Shown: in pieces, positions 27,920 to 50,101 of the stretch
How positions within the stretch are numbered: the first letter of the stretch is position 1
How the letters are laid out: each line of letters starts with the position of its first letter
From: Calditrichota bacterium
GTDB lineage: Bacteria; Calditrichota; Calditrichia; Calditrichales; Calditrichaceae
Reading direction: 5' to 3'
DNA length: 50,274 nucleotides
Assembly: GCA_024278755.1 (NCBI GenBank)
Contig: JAJRSO010000006.1
Span: forward strand, 1-50,274
The notes under the pieces: generated by a model
Databases searched by the model: none
The model's input: the letters and a program-made list of their open reading frames with translations, nothing else
Told to the model about the DNA's origin: nothing
Position numbers and translations under genes: made by a program

Positions 27920-27992
27920 GGGGCTATAGCTCAGCTGGGAGAGCGCTGCGTTCGCAATGCAGAGGTCAGCGGTTCAATCCCGCTTAGCTCCA
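27920..27992 (+). tRNA. tRNA-Ala (anticodon CGC)
   Basis: 73 bases fold into a complete cloverleaf: acceptor GGGGCTA with TAGCTCC, D stem GCTC/GAGC, anticodon stem CTGCG/TGCAG with loop TTCGCAA, T stem AGCGG/CCGCT with TTCAATC, discriminator A. Anticodon CGC reads GCG. CCA is not encoded. Confidence 0.95.
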
Positions 27993-27995
27993 CTA

Positions 27996-28091
<96 letters not shown>

Positions 28092-28092
<1 letters not shown>

Positions 28093-28100
28093 TTTTATTT
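28092..28100 (+). terminator. T-run ending the tRNA-Ala/SRP RNA transcript
   Basis: The terminal stem of the SRP RNA is followed by TTTTTATTT, giving an intrinsic terminator for the RNA unit. Confidence 0.7.
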
Positions 28101-42446: not shown

Positions 42447-43880
42447 ATGACAACGGAATATCTTAAAATAATCTGTGTGGAAGAGGGAACGGAAATATCC
42501 AAAATTATCCGTTCCATTTACGGTTCGTTGCATTATTTGCTCGAAACCGTTACACCGGATGAAGATATCCATCAGATATTAAAAAAGAGGCTGGCTAATC
42601 TGCTGGTAATTGATAACAGTGCCGCCGCTTATTCCGCTTCAGAACTCCGCCTTATTCGACAAACAAATTCAAAATTGACCATTATCCTGATTGGTCTTGA
42701 TAGTTCGGTTTTAAATGAGATTGATAATTGTACACATATTAAACTTATTTTGCCGGATGAGTTGGTAACAAAATTTCCGTTGTTGCTTAGTGATGTGTAT
42801 TCGGATTTTAGCAGCGCTGTTTATAGCGGTTTGAGCTATGGAAAGCTAATCAAAGAAAGCCTGAATAAAATAGCCGGGCTTGTGCTTATTGTCGATTCCA
42901 ATGGCGAAATTGTGTTTTTGAATCAAACGGGAGAATCTTTGTTTTGCCTGAAAGGCGGAATCTACCAGAGAAGCAATGTAATGGAACTTTTGGTGGAAGG
43001 GCATAAAAGCTGGAAATATATGACCGAGAAAAATCTGAATGCGCCAAAAGAAACACAAACATTTTTGCTTAAATTTATAAATTCCCGGGATGAAATTGTA
43101 TTAAAAACTGTTTTGATGCAACGTATCGAAATTGAAAACCCGTATTTTATCCTGCAGGAAAGCTTCAGGGCAGCTGAAACGCAAGAAAGGACGGAACAGG
43201 AACATCCCATATTGGAGAAATTTGCCGAATCCATTGCCAACGAGCTGCTCAATCCCGTCAATGTCGTCTCCGGACGGTTACAGCTAATTCGTCAGGCGCA
43301 AGGCGAGCAGGGAAAAGGGAATAAAAATCTGGATGCCATCAGCCGCCAGGTTCAGCGTATGGATGAAATAATTGCCAAACTCCTAACCTTTGCCCGCCTG
43401 AAAGAAGATTTTGTTCCCCAGCAGGTACAGATAAATGAGGTGTTACAAAGTTTACGGATGGATCCTTCCATTTCCCGACTGGTTGAACGGAGCCGGATAG
43501 GCTTAACATTTGATTTGCAGAAGCCGTCTCTCCTTATAACAGGGCAGGCTTCGCACTTCGATCTTCTGTTTAAAACACTACTCGAGATAGGGTTTGACTG
43601 CCTGGGAAGCGCCGGGGAAATTGTGGTACGTACCATCGGTACGAATTCGGCGATTAACGTAGAATTTATACTAATGTATCCCCAGGCCTTTTACAATGAT
43701 GATCTTTCGTTTGTCTCCTATCTGGGAGAGGCCGAAAAGAGTACCCGGCGTAAATACATTGAAACAACGATAATAAATCAGATAATCCGCCAATATCACG
43801 GCCGGTATCAAATTAGCAGGTTAGATGGACAGACAGAAAAGCTCGAACTACTTTTTTATAATAATGAGGAGGCTCAATGA
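42447..43880 (+). CDS. Histidine-kinase-like protein lacking the phospho-accepting histidine
   Basis: 477 residues. Residues 1-120 form a receiver-like fold without clear acidic residues, about 135-245 a PAS-like domain (GLVLIVDSNGEIVFLNQTGESLF), then a HisKA-like helix pair and an ATPase-like end. Where kinases have SIAHELxNPL this protein has SIANELLNPV, so the phospho-site is N265. The N box (HFDLLFKTLLEIGFDCL) lacks its asparagine, and the glycine-rich boxes are poorly kept. I infer a pseudokinase that may act as an allosteric or scaffold partner. It overlaps the next regulator gene by 4 bases, so the two are translated together. Confidence 0.8.
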   Translation: MTTEYLKIICVEEGTEISKIIRSIYGSLHYLLETVTPDEDIHQILKKRLANLLVIDNSAAAYSASELRLIRQTNSKLTIILIGLDSSVLNEIDNCTHIKLILPDELVTKFPLLLSDVYSDFSSAVYSGLSYGKLIKESLNKIAGLVLIVDSNGEIVFLNQTGESLFCLKGGIYQRSNVMELLVEGHKSWKYMTEKNLNAPKETQTFLLKFINSRDEIVLKTVLMQRIEIENPYFILQESFRAAETQERTEQEHPILEKFAESIANELLNPVNVVSGRLQLIRQAQGEQGKGNKNLDAISRQVQRMDEIIAKLLTFARLKEDFVPQQVQINEVLQSLRMDPSISRLVERSRIGLTFDLQKPSLLITGQASHFDLLFKTLLEIGFDCLGSAGEIVVRTIGTNSAINVEFILMYPQAFYNDDLSFVSYLGEAEKSTRRKYIETTIINQIIRQYHGRYQISRLDGQTEKLELLFYNNEEAQ

Positions 43881-45238
43881 AGTCCAGGGTTCTAATTGTA
43901 GATGATGATCTTGATGCGTTGGAAATGATGCAGGATCTCTTTGACAGTAAGGGATACAAGTCCATGACAGCGATTAACGGAATTGATGCAATTACAAAAA
44001 TCAAAGCCCATGAGCCGGATATTATCCTCTCCGATATCCGAATGCCGGAAATGAACGGGATGGAATTGTTAAAAATTCTTACAAAAGAATACCCGCATAT
44101 TCCGGTGCTGATGATAACCGCTCATGGGACCATAAAAACAGCCGTGGAAGCGATGAAAGTGGGAGCCAAAGATTATATTCTAAAACCGCTTAGTTTAGAT
44201 GAAATTCTGGCAAAAGTAGAGCGCATTACACAGTTAAACTCGTTAATCAAAGAGAATGAGTACCTGCTTAATAAATTACAGCAAACCTACGATTTTACCA
44301 ATATGATCGGTAAAACGGATAAAATCCAGGAACTGTTCCGTTTAGTAAAAGATGTGGCGGCAACCAATACCACTATTTTAATCGGAGGCGAAAGCGGCGT
44401 GGGTAAAGAACTCATTGCCAATGCCATTCATTACAACAGTTCACGGATAAAACGGCCCTTTGTTAAAGTGAATTGCGGTGTGCTGGCCGAAAGCCTTCTG
44501 GAGAGCGAGCTTTTTGGCCATGTTCGCGGCGCGTTTACCGGGGCGATTAAGGATAAAATCGGGCGTTTCGAAATGGCCAACGGAGGAACCCTGTTCCTCG
44601 ATGAAATAGGAGATATTTCCTTAAATATGCAGCTAAAGTTGCTTCGGGTTTTACAGGAAGGAGAATTCGAACGGGTTGGCGGAACCGAAACTTTAAAAGT
44701 GGATGTCCGTATTATTGCGGCTACCAATAAAGACCTGAAAAAGGCCATTGACGAAGGGACCTTCAGGCATGATTTATACTACCGTCTGAATGTGATTCCC
44801 ATTACGGTTCCTCCCCTGCGTGAGCGACGAGAAGATATCAAGTATCTGGTAAATCATTTTATTGATAAATTTAATCGTGTTTATGGGAAATCGGTTCGGG
44901 AGATAGAGCCGAGGGCCATGTAATTGATGGAGTCTTACGCCTATCCCGGAAATATCCGCGAACTGGAGAACCTGATTGAGCGCATAATCGTTTTGGATAA
45001 AACAGGTAAAATCGGCGTGGGTGATTTGCCGGAAATTATTCGCGGAATTTCGGGCGAACCTCTGGCGGAAACCATCGATTTTGAAAACGGTTTGAATAAT
45101 CTTGTGGAAGACTATGAGAAAAATCTGATTATTCAGGCGCTGGAAAAAAATAAGTTTAATAAATTCCAAACAGCCAAAATGCTGAATATGAACCGCAGTA
45201 CGTTTATGTCGAAATTAAAAAAATACGATATTAAATAA
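43877..45238 (+). pseudogene. NtrC-type sigma-54 response regulator interrupted by one in-frame TAA
   Basis: 453 codons plus the stop. Receiver domain with D53 (LSDIRMPEMNG) and KPL lysine; AAA+ domain with Walker A GESGVGKE (171-178) and the sigma-54 contact loop GAFTGA (218-223); Walker B LFLDEIGD. TAA at 44921-44923 falls in IEPRAM-stop-LMESYAYPGNIRELENLIERI, where relatives have Glu, Gln or Lys, and the frame goes on through the R-finger region (PGNIREL) and a Fis-type helix-turn-helix (FQTAKMLNMNRSTFMSKLKKY). The rest of the gene is intact. If truncated at 348 residues it would lack DNA binding. A substitution, base error or readthrough are the options. Confidence 0.82.
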
Positions 45239-45326: not shown

Positions 45327-46220
45327 ATGGCAATTTCTATTGATATGATACTTAATGATAAACACTCTGGGTCACTGACCATATCACGAAATACGCTGGA
45401 TTTATTTAAGGAATTGTTGGAAAACTGTGTGGAGGAAAAAACAGAGCCACAGGATTGTTTCAAAAAAGTTCAGAGCGTATCAAAAATAATTTTAAAAACG
45501 CAGCCCAATATGGCTTTGCTGCGGCATTGCAGTTCGCTCTTTCTAACGCAGTTCAAACGTATTTTAAAAGCAGAAGACGATACCCGTTCAATTATTGAAG
45601 CAGCTTTGGCTAAACTTATGGAAATCCGGAAAGAATTGGAAAATAATATAGAGCGCATTGGCGATATCGGTGCAAAACTTATTGCCGCATCCAACAATGT
45701 AATGACCATTAGCAGTAGCGCCATGGTTAATCAAATTCTTGTACGGGCACATACACAAAAAAAACGTTTTCATGTTTACAATTTAAAAAGCCATCCGCCG
45801 GACGAGGGGGTGTTTAGCGCCGAGTTTCTTTTACAGCAAAATATAAAAACAACATTGATTGCCGATGCAGAAATGGGATTGTTTATGCCGCAGATGAATC
45901 TTGTTTTAATTGGCGCCGATCGTGTTTTTGAAGACGGCTTTGTCAACAAAGCCGGAACGTTACCCTTATTGGTAACGGCAAAACATTTTAATGTGCCTGT
46001 TTATCTTGCTTTTGATACATGGAAAATTTTATTAAAAAACGATAAAGCAGTTAAGTTTTTGGAACGCGAAAACAGCGAAATTTATAATAACAAAACACAT
46101 GAGTTGCATGTGCAAAATTTTTACTTCGAAAGTATTCCTCTGAATCTGGTGCAAAAAGTGATTTGCGAAGAGGGTGTGTACGAAACGGGTGAATTTATAG
46201 ATTGGTATCTGAAAGGATAA
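45327..46220 (+). CDS. eIF-2B alpha/beta/delta-family protein
   Basis: 297 residues from the ATG at 45327, which has GGAAGG five bases upstream; earlier GTG (45273) and ATG (45300) starts lack a binding site. It carries the family pattern: N-terminal helices (ILNDKHSGSLTISRNTLDLF), ASNNVMTISSSAMV, LIADAEMGLFMPQMNLVLIGADRVFEDGFVNKAGTLPLLVTAKHFNVPVYLAF. Relatives include bacterial methylthioribose-1-phosphate isomerase, archaeal ribose-1,5-bisphosphate isomerase and eukaryotic eIF2B subunits. I infer a sugar-phosphate-binding or isomerase protein of unknown substrate. It precedes the AbrB-like gene by 2 bases in a coupled operon. Confidence 0.85.
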   Translation: MAISIDMILNDKHSGSLTISRNTLDLFKELLENCVEEKTEPQDCFKKVQSVSKIILKTQPNMALLRHCSSLFLTQFKRILKAEDDTRSIIEAALAKLMEIRKELENNIERIGDIGAKLIAASNNVMTISSSAMVNQILVRAHTQKKRFHVYNLKSHPPDEGVFSAEFLLQQNIKTTLIADAEMGLFMPQMNLVLIGADRVFEDGFVNKAGTLPLLVTAKHFNVPVYLAFDTWKILLKNDKAVKFLERENSEIYNNKTHELHVQNFYFESIPLNLVQKVICEEGVYETGEFIDWYLKG

Positions 46221-46222
46221 TA

Positions 46223-46411
46223 ATGGTTTTAGGTAAGTTTATCGCAGAGGTTACAAAAGAGAAACAAATTCAGTTGCCTCCGGAAGTTTTGACTCAGTTA
46301 AAAATAAATGACGGTGATAAAATAGAAGTACATGTAAAGCGCATTCGCTCCCATCGATTGGAACTTAAAATTTCAAAAAACCCCTTGGTTAAACTATTGG
46401 AACAAAAGTGA
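46223..46411 (+). CDS. AbrB/SpoVT-type DNA-binding (VapB-like antitoxin) protein
   Basis: 62 residues: MVLGKFIAEVTKEKQIQLPP, then EVLTQLKINDGDKIEVHVKR. This is the swapped-hairpin AbrB fold used by many antitoxins and transcription factors. It begins 2 bases after the upstream stop and overlaps or abuts the PIN gene (whose possible GTG start at 46408 shares the last 4 bases). A VapB role, repressing its operon and neutralising the PIN protein, is the natural inference. Confidence 0.8.
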   Translation: MVLGKFIAEVTKEKQIQLPPEVLTQLKINDGDKIEVHVKRIRSHRLELKISKNPLVKLLEQK

Positions 46412-46413
46412 AT

Positions 46414-46854
46414 ATGAAAATACAAACATTTTTTATAGACTCCAGCGCCTGGATTGCTATCGCGGATAAAAACAATCCTCTTCATGATTCGGCGCAAATG
46501 TATTTTAATCATCTGTTGGAAATAAATGCCAAATTAGTGTCGAATAATGTGGAAATTGATGAGGCGATTGTACAGTTAAAAAAACGAAGCGGAGCAAAAA
46601 GCGCCAGCCGTTTTTTAAATATCATCGACGAAGCGGTACTAACGATTCATTTAAAGGTTGACTGGGTTTCCCGCCGTGTTCGCCGCAACGGACTAAGCCA
46701 GTATCTGAATTGTAAGGATGAGCAAATTGGCTTGCGCCAGTTTTTTATATATGAGTCTGTAATGCGTAAACACGCAGAGATTATCTTTTCGTTTGATTCA
46801 GCGTTAAAATATTTTAATATTCCATTAATGCCGCAAACGGAAGTAAACAAATGA
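46414..46854 (+). CDS. PIN-domain protein (VapC-like)
   Basis: 146 residues from ATG 46414; a GTG at 46408 is also possible. PIN nucleases use clustered acidic residues: FIDSSAWIAIAD at the N-terminus, NNVEIDEA in the middle, and KDEQIGLRQ with SFDSALKYFNI near the end. VapC-type proteins cleave RNA such as tRNA or rRNA. The gene overlaps the following YqeC-like gene by 4 bases (ATGA). Because it sits inside a metabolic operon, a housekeeping RNase role is as likely as addiction. Confidence 0.82.
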   Translation: MKIQTFFIDSSAWIAIADKNNPLHDSAQMYFNHLLEINAKLVSNNVEIDEAIVQLKKRSGAKSASRFLNIIDEAVLTIHLKVDWVSRRVRRNGLSQYLNCKDEQIGLRQFFIYESVMRKHAEIIFSFDSALKYFNIPLMPQTEVNK

Positions 46855-47558
46855 AAAATTTGTTTTTTACAAAGTTTAACCTGCAAAACGAGCAATTTAT
46901 CATCGTTTCCGGAGAAGGAAATAATACGGCTCTTATCCACCTGCTGGCGGATGAAGCTAAGACAGCTGCCTTTCATGCGCTCGTAATTGCTTCAGCGCCT
47001 CAGCGTTATCCCATCGAAGGGAAAGTGCTTATCAGTGATGAAACGGACCTGCTGTTCCGTCTTATCCGTTCCGATCAACCGGAAGTAACCTATCTTGCCG
47101 GAAAAGTGGAGGGTGATCTTTTAATTCCGTTCAATAAAAATGAATTGAAAACGTTAATTCAGAAAGCCGCTACAGATACCAAAATATTTGTAAATCTCTT
47201 CCCGGCGGATAAAGCGGCTGATTCCTTTGAAAAATTATTTAAGAAGGCGTTGCATCTCTGTACTATTAATTTTAATGTGTTAAGACCGCAACTGCTGGAA
47301 ATTTATCAGAATACGGAAGTACAATCTTCTTCTTCAGCACAAAAAAAGATTCAAAAACAATTCCAGACTTTAATCGAGCAAACCTGTCCGTCCTGTCTGA
47401 AAAATGAGGATAGCAATAGATGTTTTCTGTTTGTAGATCAGATTAAAAATGTGCTTGACGAAAATCTGTTTATCCCGGTTGCCAGGCATTTTCAGAAAAC
47501 GCGGGAAATAACGATTTTATATGGCAGTTTGTATCAGTATAGTGTGAAAAAAATATAA
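46851..47558 (+). CDS. YqeC-like accessory protein with degenerate P-loop
   Basis: 235 residues. Length and motif order agree with the YqeC family, accessory proteins of selenium-dependent molybdenum hydroxylases. YqeC normally starts with a GGGGKTT P-loop, then a TTT-type stretch, then a DE...L...V.YLAG region. Here the P-loop region reads VSGEGNNTALIHLLADEAK, without the lysine, followed by VIASAPQRYPIEGKVLISDETDLLFRLIRS and EVTYLAGKVEGDLL. I infer a YqeC relative that may no longer bind nucleotide. The adjacent gene belongs to the partner family YqeB, which strengthens the call. Overlaps: 4 bases before, 1 base after. Confidence 0.6.
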   Translation: MKNLFFTKFNLQNEQFIIVSGEGNNTALIHLLADEAKTAAFHALVIASAPQRYPIEGKVLISDETDLLFRLIRSDQPEVTYLAGKVEGDLLIPFNKNELKTLIQKAATDTKIFVNLFPADKAADSFEKLFKKALHLCTINFNVLRPQLLEIYQNTEVQSSSSAQKKIQKQFQTLIEQTCPSCLKNEDSNRCFLFVDQIKNVLDENLFIPVARHFQKTREITILYGSLYQYSVKKI

Positions 47559-48394
47559 TGGTTTCTATCCACGTGTTAATAACCGGCAGCGATGATTTGG
47601 CCTCTGCTACCGCCTTGCGTCTGTTTCGTGCTGGCTTTAAAGTAACGCTTTTCGTACCCAACCGCCCTATTGATATCCACCATACACGGACATTTAGCAG
47701 CGCCGTATATAACGGAGAAAAAACAATTGATGAGGTGGTTGCCTGCACCCGCAGCGGTTCTGCGGCCAGGGGAGACAGTACGCCGGAAACAGACCTGGCT
47801 GACTTTATTGAATTTACCTATGCCAATCGTCAGATTCCGATTCTTACAGAGGAAGACCTGGTAAAAGCAACCGCTCTTCCGTTTGAATATATCTTTGCAG
47901 CAGACGCCGGACTCTTCGGGAATCTTCCTGTTCGTATCAAAGAAAACAGCGTAATAATTTCTAAAAAAGGAGATAATACCGCTTCATCAAGTCGCTACGA
48001 GATTTGTGTTGATCCCGTATTTCTTGGACAAGTGCTTTATCCTTTTAACCGGGATGATTTTATGGATTGTGGCGTGCCTGAAACAACGGACGGTTCTAAA
48101 GAACGTGTTAAGGCGCCCCTCGAGGGGGTATTTACAACCGATGCAATGGTTGATACTTTGGTACACGAAAAACAAGAGCTGGGCCGTATAAACGATATTC
48201 CTATTTTATCTCCTGTTTCCGGAAAAATAAGCGGCCTGCTGAACAGCGGAATGATCATCCCGGCAGGAACGGTATTTGCCGAAATTAGTTCTGTTACGGA
48301 TCCGCATCCGCCAAAGCGGATCTCTCCGGCATCATTTTCGGTGGCGGGCGCCGTACTGGAAGCAATTATGTTTGATTTAAATCTCAATAAATAA
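47558..48394 (+). CDS. YqeB-family (EF2563-type) protein of selenium-dependent molybdenum hydroxylase systems
   Basis: 278 residues. It shares the family outline: N-terminal Rossmann-type start (VLITGSDDLASATALRLFRAGFKVTLF against the usual GAGDLASG), TFSSAVYNGEKTIDEVVA, LTEEDLVKATALPFEYIFAADA, and a C-terminal lipoyl-like hairpin ILSPVSGKISGLLNSGMIIPAGTVFAEIS. YqeB proteins accompany Se-Mo hydroxylases, yet no such hydroxylase, selD or molybdenum cofactor gene is in this window. Its start codon overlaps the previous stop (TAATG). Biochemical role unknown. Confidence 0.75.
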   Translation: MVSIHVLITGSDDLASATALRLFRAGFKVTLFVPNRPIDIHHTRTFSSAVYNGEKTIDEVVACTRSGSAARGDSTPETDLADFIEFTYANRQIPILTEEDLVKATALPFEYIFAADAGLFGNLPVRIKENSVIISKKGDNTASSSRYEICVDPVFLGQVLYPFNRDDFMDCGVPETTDGSKERVKAPLEGVFTTDAMVDTLVHEKQELGRINDIPILSPVSGKISGLLNSGMIIPAGTVFAEISSVTDPHPPKRISPASFSVAGAVLEAIMFDLNLNK

Positions 48395-48493: not shown

Positions 48494-49963
48494 ATGGAGA
48501 CGGTAAAAAACGCACTACAAATGGCAAGTAACACAGTTTGGGGATGGCCGCAAATTATGCCACTGATGGTGGTTATCCTGTTGGGAACCGGTATTTTTAT
48601 TACGTTGCGTTTGCGCTGGATTCAGTTGTTTCGGTTAAAACATGCCTGGAATGTAATCCGTGGGAAATATGATAATCCCGATGATGAGGGGGATATTAAC
48701 CATTTTCAGGCGCTTAGTACCGCTTTGTCTGCCACCGTAGGCATCGGAAATATTGCCGGCGTAGCTACGGCCATTCACTACGGCGGACCCGGCGCTCTGT
48801 TCTGGATGTGGCTCACTGCTATCTTCGGAATGGCTTTAAAATTTTCCGAAGCAACACTTGCCGTTCATTACCGCAAAATAAATGCAGACGGCTCCGCAAG
48901 TGGCGGCCCTATGTACTATATCGAAAAAGGACTGGGCGCCAAATGGAAACCACTGGCAGTGACCTTTGCGGCGCTTGCTGTTATTTCGTCTTTCGGGACA
49001 GGAAACGCCATTCAGGCTTTTACGGTTTCGGATCAGGTATTAAGCGATTTTAATAGTATCCTGACACCTGGGAACTGGCTGATCAATTCTGTTGATTTTT
49101 TAGGAATTCACGTAGAGCCGGTCCGAATTTTTACAGGCCTGTTCACAACTTTTCTGGTAGCTCTTGTTATTTTGGGAGGGATAAAGCGGATTGGAAGGGT
49201 AACGTCTAAATTAACACCGGCGATGGCCGGACTTTATGTGGGCGGCGCTCTTTTAATAATAATACTAAACTGGCAAAATGTTATCCCCGCGATTGCCGAA
49301 ATTATTAGCCAGGCTTTTGTTCCCAAAGCGCAGGTTGCGGGCGCCGCGGGCGGAGGACTTTTGCTGTTTTTAAATACAATGGTCTGGGGGGTCAAAAGAG
49401 GGTTGTTTTCCAACGAAGCGGGACAGGGGAGTGCGCCCATCGCGCATGCCGCAGCCAAAACCAAAGAGCCGGTACGTGAGGGTGTTGTGGCTATGCTTGG
49501 GCCGCTGGTTGACACGTTGATGATTTGTACTTTAACCGGTCTTGTCATTGTATTAACGGGCGCGCACGAAACGTTGATTAACGGTAGTATTCTAAATGGT
49601 TCACCGTTGACCGCACTGGCTTTTAAAACCGGGCTTGCGCCTATTTTCCCTTACGGGGATAAAATAATTACCCTGGCCGTATTTTTATTTGCTGTCTCGA
49701 CAGCCATTAGCTGGTCCTATTATGGTGATCGAAGTATTGAATACTTAAGCAGTTCAAAGTCGATTATGCCCTATAAAATCGTTTATGTTATCATGCATTT
49801 TGTTGGGGCTATTGTATCATTGGAAATTGTATGGGCTTTTGGCGATATCGCTCTCGGCTTGATGGCATTGCCAAATTTATTGGCGCTCGTACTACTTTCT
49901 CCCATAATCCTGACGCTTACAAAGGATTATTTTTCAAGAAAACATAAAGTTTTTAAAAAATAA
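48494..49963 (+). CDS. Alanine/glycine:cation symporter (AGCS family)
   Basis: 489 residues with about 10-11 helices. The family signature is clear: QALSTALSATVGIGNIAGVATAIHYGGPGALFWMW, SASGGPMYYIEKGLG, and GLFSNEAGQGSAPIAHAAAKTKEPVREG. AGCS proteins import alanine or glycine with Na+ or H+. It starts 99 bases after the YqeB-like gene, with GGAAAGG as ribosome binding site, and may be in the same transcript or separate. Confidence 0.95.
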   Translation: METVKNALQMASNTVWGWPQIMPLMVVILLGTGIFITLRLRWIQLFRLKHAWNVIRGKYDNPDDEGDINHFQALSTALSATVGIGNIAGVATAIHYGGPGALFWMWLTAIFGMALKFSEATLAVHYRKINADGSASGGPMYYIEKGLGAKWKPLAVTFAALAVISSFGTGNAIQAFTVSDQVLSDFNSILTPGNWLINSVDFLGIHVEPVRIFTGLFTTFLVALVILGGIKRIGRVTSKLTPAMAGLYVGGALLIIILNWQNVIPAIAEIISQAFVPKAQVAGAAGGGLLLFLNTMVWGVKRGLFSNEAGQGSAPIAHAAAKTKEPVREGVVAMLGPLVDTLMICTLTGLVIVLTGAHETLINGSILNGSPLTALAFKTGLAPIFPYGDKIITLAVFLFAVSTAISWSYYGDRSIEYLSSSKSIMPYKIVYVIMHFVGAIVSLEIVWAFGDIALGLMALPNLLALVLLSPIILTLTKDYFSRKHKVFKK

Positions 49964-50028: not shown

Positions 50029-50101
50029 GAGCCAGTAGCTCAGCTGGTAGAGCAGCGGCCTTTTAAGCCGTTGGTCCGGAGTTCGAATCTCCGCTGGCTC
50101 A
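50029..50101 (+). tRNA. tRNA-Lys (anticodon TTT)
   Basis: 73 bases in a complete cloverleaf: acceptor GAGCCAG/CTGGCTC, D stem GCTC/GAGC, anticodon stem GCGGC/GCCGT with loop CTTTTAA, T arm CGGAG-TTCGAAT-CTCCG, discriminator A. Anticodon TTT; CCA not encoded. Confidence 0.95.

What the first reader, a model, noticed from the sequence alone, without database searches (positions are those of the whole stretch)
45327..48394. Five-gene coupled operon joining an eIF2B-like protein, an AbrB/PIN pair and YqeC/YqeB-like proteins
Gaps and overlaps are 2, about 2 (or 4 overlap), 4 overlap and 1 overlap, so the five are probably translated as a unit. A sugar-phosphate-isomerase-like protein, a toxin/antitoxin-like pair and two proteins of the selenium-molybdenum hydroxylase accessory families are not expected together, and the hydroxylase itself is absent. 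The YqeC-like protein has lost its P-loop lysine. This could be an uncharacterised pathway, such as handling of a modified nucleotide or cofactor in which the PIN protein acts as a regulated RNase. Function is inference; layout is seen.
Basis: partly seen in the sequence, partly recalled or inferred. Interest (0 to 1): 0.65.

Follow-up and report, generated by a model that had tools for sequence, protein, structure and literature searches.

The report
Disarmed toxin pair in YqeBC operon
Throughout one bacterial phylum (Calditrichota) a toxin-antitoxin pair that has lost its RNA-cutting residues is a fixed part of an operon with two relatives of selenium/molybdenum-cofactor helper proteins, which suggests the old toxin was given a new, non-cutting job.

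Summary
The five-gene layout is real (gaps 2, 2 or -4, -4, -1) and not unique to this genome. AbrB-PIN-(YqeC)-YqeB is a conserved cluster across Calditrichota: AbrB+PIN in 31 of 40 genomes, YqeB-like in 31, 28 with both. It was not found beside 63 PIN relatives from other phyla. The eIF2B-like gene is a later join: in deeper families it sits elsewhere behind cutA, and abrB has its own promoter.

The families are confirmed. The last gene is a divergent YqeB (TIGR03309, 85 bits, below the 220-bit cut-off). The fourth is a derived YqeC: relatives reach 64 bits to PF19842; one of 20 keeps the P-loop. "Regulated RNase" is not supported: none of 30 cluster PIN proteins keeps all four catalytic acids that outside relatives keep, yet AbrB and PIN are under strong purifying selection with a new W..RR motif. 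The eIF2B-like protein lacks the isomerase cysteine.

The hydroxylase is absent only locally: two xanthine-dehydrogenase-type enzymes are encoded elsewhere in this genome, but they do not track YqeB across the phylum.

Best reading: a VapBC-type pair was captured once, disarmed and fixed as a non-nucleolytic accessory of a divergent YqeC/YqeB module. Anatomy well supported; function inferred.

The parts
45327..46220 (+). eIF2B-like / isomerase-fold protein (PF01008), cysteine position replaced by serine; a later addition to the cluster
   Evidence: PF01008 154 bits; below every NCBIfam equivalog cut-off; unlinked in families f4-f6, behind cutA
46223..46411 (+). AbrB/MazE-fold small protein with conserved C-terminal tail (ISKNPLxKLL), antitoxin-like (alternative TTG start 46202)
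   Evidence: PF04014 20.5 bits, just under cut-off; family alignment of 31
46414..46854 (+). Disarmed PIN-domain (VapC20-like) protein; acid 3 replaced by Gln here, new W86/R89/R90 motif (numbering from the GTG start at 46408)
   Evidence: PF01850 weak, 25 of 29 members match; VapC20 by profile and by fold, TM 0.78; active-site count
46851..47558 (+). Derived YqeC-family protein, P-loop NTPase fold with degenerate Walker A
   Evidence: family chain to PF19842; its profile also finds classical YqeC in other phyla; fold like MinD/HypB
47558..48394 (+). Divergent YqeB-like protein (Rossmann-like N-terminus, lipoyl-like C-terminal domain)
   Evidence: TIGR03309 85.3 bits, full length, cut-off 220; all 28 aligned relatives match the same model
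48494..49963 (+). Sodium:alanine symporter gene, conserved neighbour downstream of YqeB (not counted in the core)
   Evidence: PF01235 443 bits; same neighbour in 15 of the 33 stretches examined, including families f4 and f6

Best explanation
The core is a Calditrichota-specific operon abrB-pin-yqeC-yqeB. Shown by sequence: one VapBC-type pair was captured next to a YqeC/YqeB pair in an ancestor of the phylum; the PIN protein lost its four-acid nuclease site and gained a W..RR motif; YqeC lost its ATP-binding P-loop; all parts stay under purifying selection. Shown: in families f4-f6 the operon starts at abrB with its own promoter-like site; in f1-f3 (this genome) the unit was appended to a cutA/eIF2B-like transcription unit and that site was lost. 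Inferred: AbrB and PIN still form a VapBC-like complex, now non-nucleolytic, that serves the module as a regulator or scaffold, by binding its own DNA or mRNA or by holding YqeC and YqeB. Inferred: YqeB is the working part, carrying or inserting a labile selenium, sulfur or pterin intermediate through its lipoyl-like domain, with the degenerate YqeC as its partner. It probably no longer serves only xanthine-dehydrogenase-type hydroxylases.
For: Conserved order in 40 genomes. YqeB-PIN co-occurrence 28 both, 3 and 3 single, 6 neither, Fisher P 0.0014 (not corrected for kinship). PIN acids: 63/63, 62/63, 59/59, 59/59 in relatives outside the phylum against 0 of 30 complete sets in the cluster; W86 and R90 30/30, R89 29/30 with one Lys, in the cluster. 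Cluster PINs form one clade, support 0.955. dN/dS for PIN 0.04-0.11 and AbrB 0.02-0.17 where dS is measurable, 0 in the closest pair. PIN, YqeC, YqeB and AbrB distances correlate, rho 0.61-0.84, 0 of 499 permutations as high. Promoter-like TTG-N20-TAnnTTT 48-53 bases before abrB in 8 of 9 f4-f6 loci, expected 0.19; 1 of 22 in f1-f3, expected 1.43. Classical YqeB-YqeC neighbours in other phyla have intact P-loops and no AbrB/PIN of this kind. YqeB presence is independent of Mo hydroxylase (P 1.0) and of MoaA (P 0.48). yqeB is needed for selenium-dependent xanthine/urate use in C. difficile, yqeC is dispensable (PMC11448449).
Against: No binding, expression or complex data. In f1-f3 abrB is no longer first in the operon, which weakens pure autoregulation. 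AbrB-PIN persists without YqeB in G021 and G034 and with YqeC only in G022; YqeB persists without AbrB-PIN in G006, so no part is strictly dependent on another. Other conserved acids (D51, E116 in f1-f2) could form an altered active site. Several dS values are saturated. The carrier role of YqeB is unproven even in the model organisms.
Confidence: 0.42

Rival explanations
1. Ordinary selenium-cofactor module: YqeC/YqeB mature selenium-dependent molybdenum hydroxylases encoded elsewhere, and AbrB-PIN is an unrelated chromosomal pair that happens to share the operon.
For: SelD in 38 of 40 genomes and in all 31 with YqeB; this genome has two xanthine-dehydrogenase loci, one with an XdhC-like gene; YqeB role in C. 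difficile.
Against: Four genomes of one genus (85-96% complete) keep YqeB without any PF20256 hydroxylase; eight lacking YqeB have hydroxylases. The best-scoring hydroxylase here is curated as ordinary xanthine dehydrogenase, not the selenium model. YqeB scores far below the equivalog cut-off. Linkage to AbrB-PIN is conserved through the phylum.
Confidence: 0.25
2. AbrB-PIN is an active toxin-antitoxin pair or regulated RNase with an altered active site that acts on the operon mRNA or on rRNA (VapC20-like).
For: Fold and profile closest to VapC20, a 23S rRNA endonuclease; acid 1 invariant; D51 and E116 conserved in f1-f2.
Against: Acid 3 lost in f1-f3 and acid 4 in f4-f6, acid 2 variable; single copy, vertical, phylum-wide, unlike mobile toxin-antitoxin pairs.
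Confidence: 0.13
3. Neutral gene-order conservation: unrelated housekeeping genes stay together because rearrangement is rare, with no shared function.
For: Neighbours pdxS, pdxT, cutA and the Na:Ala symporter are also retained in order; parts are lost independently.
Against: abrB-pin-yqeC-yqeB persists in f4-f6 where most other neighbours differ; overlapping starts and stops recur; distances of the four genes correlate (though shared descent alone gives this).
Confidence: 0.2

Closest known systems
YqeB/YqeC of the selenium-dependent molybdenum hydroxylase trait (TIGR03309, PF19842; Haft and Self 2008, PMC2276186)
   Same: Both families present and adjacent; YqeB homologous over its full length; genomes carry SelD.
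   Different: YqeB below the equivalog cut-off; YqeC has lost Walker A; no hydroxylase, MocA, XdhC or SelD beside it; AbrB and PIN genes added; presence not tied to hydroxylases.
VapBC toxin-antitoxin systems, nearest VapC20 (5wzf)
   Same: PIN fold, small AbrB-type partner gene immediately upstream, tight or overlapping junction.
   Different: Nuclease acids lost, new W..RR motif, single-copy vertical inheritance, fixed in a metabolic operon.
Ribose-1,5-bisphosphate isomerase / eIF2B alpha / MtnA superfamily (PF01008)
   Same: Fold family and overall sequence, E 5e-45 to Pfam.
   Different: Cysteine position is serine in 34 of 34; below every NCBIfam cut-off; a separate, more distant paralogue (346-357 aa, MtnA-like size) is present in the genome.

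Membership tests
YqeB (TIGR03309) | score above equivalog cut-off of 220 bits | tested here: not met
   85.3 bits; 0 of 40 genomes reach the cut-off
YqeB (TIGR03309) | full-length homology | tested here: met
   positions 1-254 of 256, E 4.4e-24; all 28 relatives match
YqeB (TIGR03309) | only in selD-positive genomes | tested here: inconclusive
   31 of 31, but selD is in 38 of 40 anyway
YqeB (TIGR03309) | located in molybdenum hydroxylase / selD loci | tested here: not met
   no such neighbours recognised at the 32 fetched loci and the window
YqeC (PF19842) | match to family model | tested here: met
   window copy alone no match; 8 of 20 family members match, two above the cut-off of 27.6 (64.3 and 31.3 bits) and one at it
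YqeC (PF19842) | Walker A P-loop GxGGKT | tested here: not met
   lost in the window and in 19 of 20; intact in E. coli and in 5 classical neighbours
VapBC toxin-antitoxin | PIN fold | tested here: met
   AlphaFold pLDDT 93.9; VapC20 TM 0.78
VapBC toxin-antitoxin | four conserved acidic active-site residues | tested here: not met
   0 of 30 complete
VapBC toxin-antitoxin | antitoxin-type partner immediately upstream | tested here: met
   AbrB/MazE-type gene upstream of every cluster PIN, 31 of 31 loci
VapBC toxin-antitoxin | toxicity neutralised by partner | not testable with these tools
   needs expression
Ribose-1,5-bisphosphate / MTR-1-P isomerase | catalytic cysteine (position from memory of R15P isomerase and MtnA) | tested here: not met
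   Ser in 34 of 34
Selenium-cofactor trait | SelD plus a Mo hydroxylase in the genome | tested here: met
   both in G000, but presence is not correlated with YqeB in the phylum

The most novel reading that the evidence does not exclude
A toxin-antitoxin pair was converted, once and for a whole phylum, into a non-nucleolytic working part of a cofactor-handling complex (AbrB-PIN-YqeC-YqeB) whose cargo is not the classical selenium-molybdenum hydroxylase. It may even relate to how xanthine-dehydrogenase-type enzymes work in the many Calditrichota that lack MoaA, MoaC and MoeA.
Probability: 0.2. Interest if true: 0.75.

Novelty: new variant of a known kind. Interest (0 to 1): 0.52.

Why it matters
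Toxin-antitoxin pairs are usually mobile and short-lived. A pair disarmed and kept throughout a phylum inside a metabolic operon is a clear case of domestication with a readable sequence record. It also gives a natural handle on YqeB and YqeC, whose chemistry is among the least understood parts of selenium biology, because here their inheritance can be compared with hydroxylases, SelD and Moco genes across 40 genomes. One genome carrying the cluster (G001, a single 4.98-Mb contig, probably the cultured Caldithrix abyssi, an inference from size) makes experiments possible.

Tried and rejected
A single-protein scan of genome contigs with the window YqeB found nothing. PDB sequence search with the YqeC profile gave only chance matches, so fold comparison was used. 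The YqeB profile gave only Rossmann and lipoyl-type fragments. One PIN active-site tally was wrong through alignment gap handling and was redone; one promoter script failed and was redone. No Rfam element lies in the cluster. Association of YqeB with hydroxylases or Moco genes was tested and rejected. Searching a neighbouring phylum by kinship was not possible, so 40 genomes that hold outside PIN relatives were searched instead. No paper describing this cluster was found in the held library.

Full report
Observation. The five ORFs lie on the + strand at 45327-46220, 46223-46411, 46414-46854, 46851-47558 and 47558-48394 with junctions +2, +2 (or -4 with a GTG start), -4 and -1.

Where it is. 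The window is contig C71 of a 3.94-Mb, 95.8% complete assembly. Contigs of the same lengths holding the relatives are titled Calditrichota / Calditrichia / Calditrichaceae in a named collection, so the phylum is Calditrichota. Families are written f1-f6 and genomes G000-G039 as the tools gave them; G000 is the window's genome.

Conservation. Searches of 40 Calditrichota genomes found the YqeB-like protein in 31, the PIN protein in 31, the YqeC-like protein by pairwise search in 14 and the eIF2B-like protein in 39. Fetching the loci and building profiles showed AbrB-PIN as a pair at 31 loci, YqeB within the run at 28 of them, and YqeC between PIN and YqeB at 19 loci plus one locus (G022) where YqeB is absent. 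All five genes run together in 13 genomes. YqeC is absent in family f2, in G005 and in G029/G030. G006 has only eIF2B-like plus YqeB. G021 and G034 have AbrB-PIN without YqeC and YqeB. Junctions are short or overlapping in most.

The eIF2B-like gene joined later. In f1-f3 it precedes abrB; in f4-f6 its orthologue is elsewhere in the genome, still preceded by cutA in at least nine of eleven loci (CutA confirmed for two representatives by Pfam). In f1-f3 cutA precedes the eIF2B-like gene in 17 loci, often behind pdxS and pdxT. In f4-f6, 8 of 9 abrB genes have a promoter-like TTG-N20-TAnnTTT 48-53 bases before the start codon, against 0.19 expected in shuffled sequence; f1-f3 has 1 of 22 against 1.43 expected. 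Two transcription units therefore probably merged and the inner promoter was lost. That this motif is the promoter type of the Bacteroidota-Chlorobiota-Fibrobacterota group is from my own knowledge.

The PIN protein is disarmed. Fold and profile place it nearest VapC20. Compared with 63 relatives from other phyla, which keep the four acids in 63/63, 62/63, 59/59 and 59/59 readable cases, none of 30 Calditrichota cluster proteins keeps all four. Acid 3 is His, Gln or Tyr in f1-f3, acid 4 is Lys, Asn or Arg in f4-f6, and acid 2 is variable. In exchange W86 and R90 are fixed in 30 of 30 and R89 in 29 (one Lys). The cluster PINs are one clade (support 0.955). dN/dS is 0.04-0.11 for PIN where dS could be estimated (0 for the closest pair, with dS 0.195), so the protein is in use, not decaying. 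AbrB keeps a conserved C-terminal tail. None of the 63 outside loci has YqeC, YqeB or the eIF2B-like gene nearby.

YqeC and YqeB. The window YqeC-like protein alone matches no family, but its relatives match PF19842, best 64.3 bits in G022, which keeps the P-loop GGGGKTT. The Calditrichota YqeC profile also finds classical YqeC genes next to classical YqeB in five loci of other phyla, all with intact P-loops and none with the AbrB or PIN of this cluster nearby. Walker A is therefore lost in 19 of 20 Calditrichota members. The predicted fold resembles MinD/HypB-type P-loop proteins. YqeB matches TIGR03309 over its full length at 85 bits, below the cut-off of 220; no Calditrichota genome reaches it. 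Haft and Self describe a sharp fall-off below that family to homologues mostly from genomes without selD (PMC2276186); the Calditrichota proteins score in that lower range but are in selD-positive genomes.

Hydroxylases and selenium. This genome has two xanthine-dehydrogenase-type loci; the subunits of one pass curated cut-offs for ordinary xanthine dehydrogenase, and the other has an XdhC-like gene. Across 40 genomes YqeB is not associated with Mo hydroxylase (25/6 against 8/1, P 1.0) or MoaA (P 0.48). It is within SelD-positive genomes (31/31, P 0.046), but SelD is nearly universal. These tests ignore kinship. In C. difficile yqeB, not yqeC, is required for growth on xanthine and urate (PMC11448449), which fits a system in which YqeB matters most and YqeC can be lost.

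The eIF2B-like protein has Ser at the isomerase cysteine position in 34 of 34 members (residue role from memory, alignment). Three of the five proteins thus lack catalytic residues expected of their families.

Mechanism. I judge most likely (0.42) that AbrB-PIN is a non-nucleolytic accessory of a divergent YqeC/YqeB module, acting as regulator or scaffold. VapB-VapC complexes bind and repress their own promoters (PMC3302801), so a pair that lost its nuclease could keep this role; the promoter directly before abrB in f4-f6 fits, while its loss in f1-f3 favours a scaffold role there. The chemistry of YqeB is inferred from its lipoyl-like domain and from C. difficile genetics. Which role is right cannot be decided by sequence.

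Novelty. The components are known families; the phylum-wide combination with a disarmed toxin pair was not found elsewhere with these tools or in the held papers.

Noticed in passing
window 43877-45238, stop codon at 44921-44923: An NtrC-type regulator gene is interrupted by an in-frame TAA where three relatives encode Glu or Arg; recent inactivation or sequencing error.
   Followed up: partly
G000 (L101, L102) and most f1 genomes, G039: Xanthine-dehydrogenase-type hydroxylases occur in genomes with no detectable MoaA, MoaC and MoeA, including 95-99% complete ones and a single-contig genome; 'orphan molybdoproteins' are reported in PMC6147048.
   Followed up: partly
L107:2588-4801 (G000 contig C44): NifS-type cysteine desulfurase fused to SelD; a second SelD gene with an in-frame TGA (probable selenocysteine) is on contig C53.
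   Followed up: partly
window 48494-49963 and 14 other stretches: A sodium:alanine symporter gene follows YqeB in many genomes, also in the deep families f4 and f6.
   Followed up: no
L060 (G022): The only Calditrichota YqeC with an intact P-loop is in a genome without YqeB and without a SelD match over the cut-off.
   Followed up: no
L191-L202: A cutA-eIF2B-like gene pair is conserved throughout the class independent of the AbrB-PIN-YqeBC cluster.
   Followed up: partly
window 27920-28095 and 50029-50101: tRNA plus bacterial small SRP RNA, and another tRNA; ordinary.
   Followed up: no
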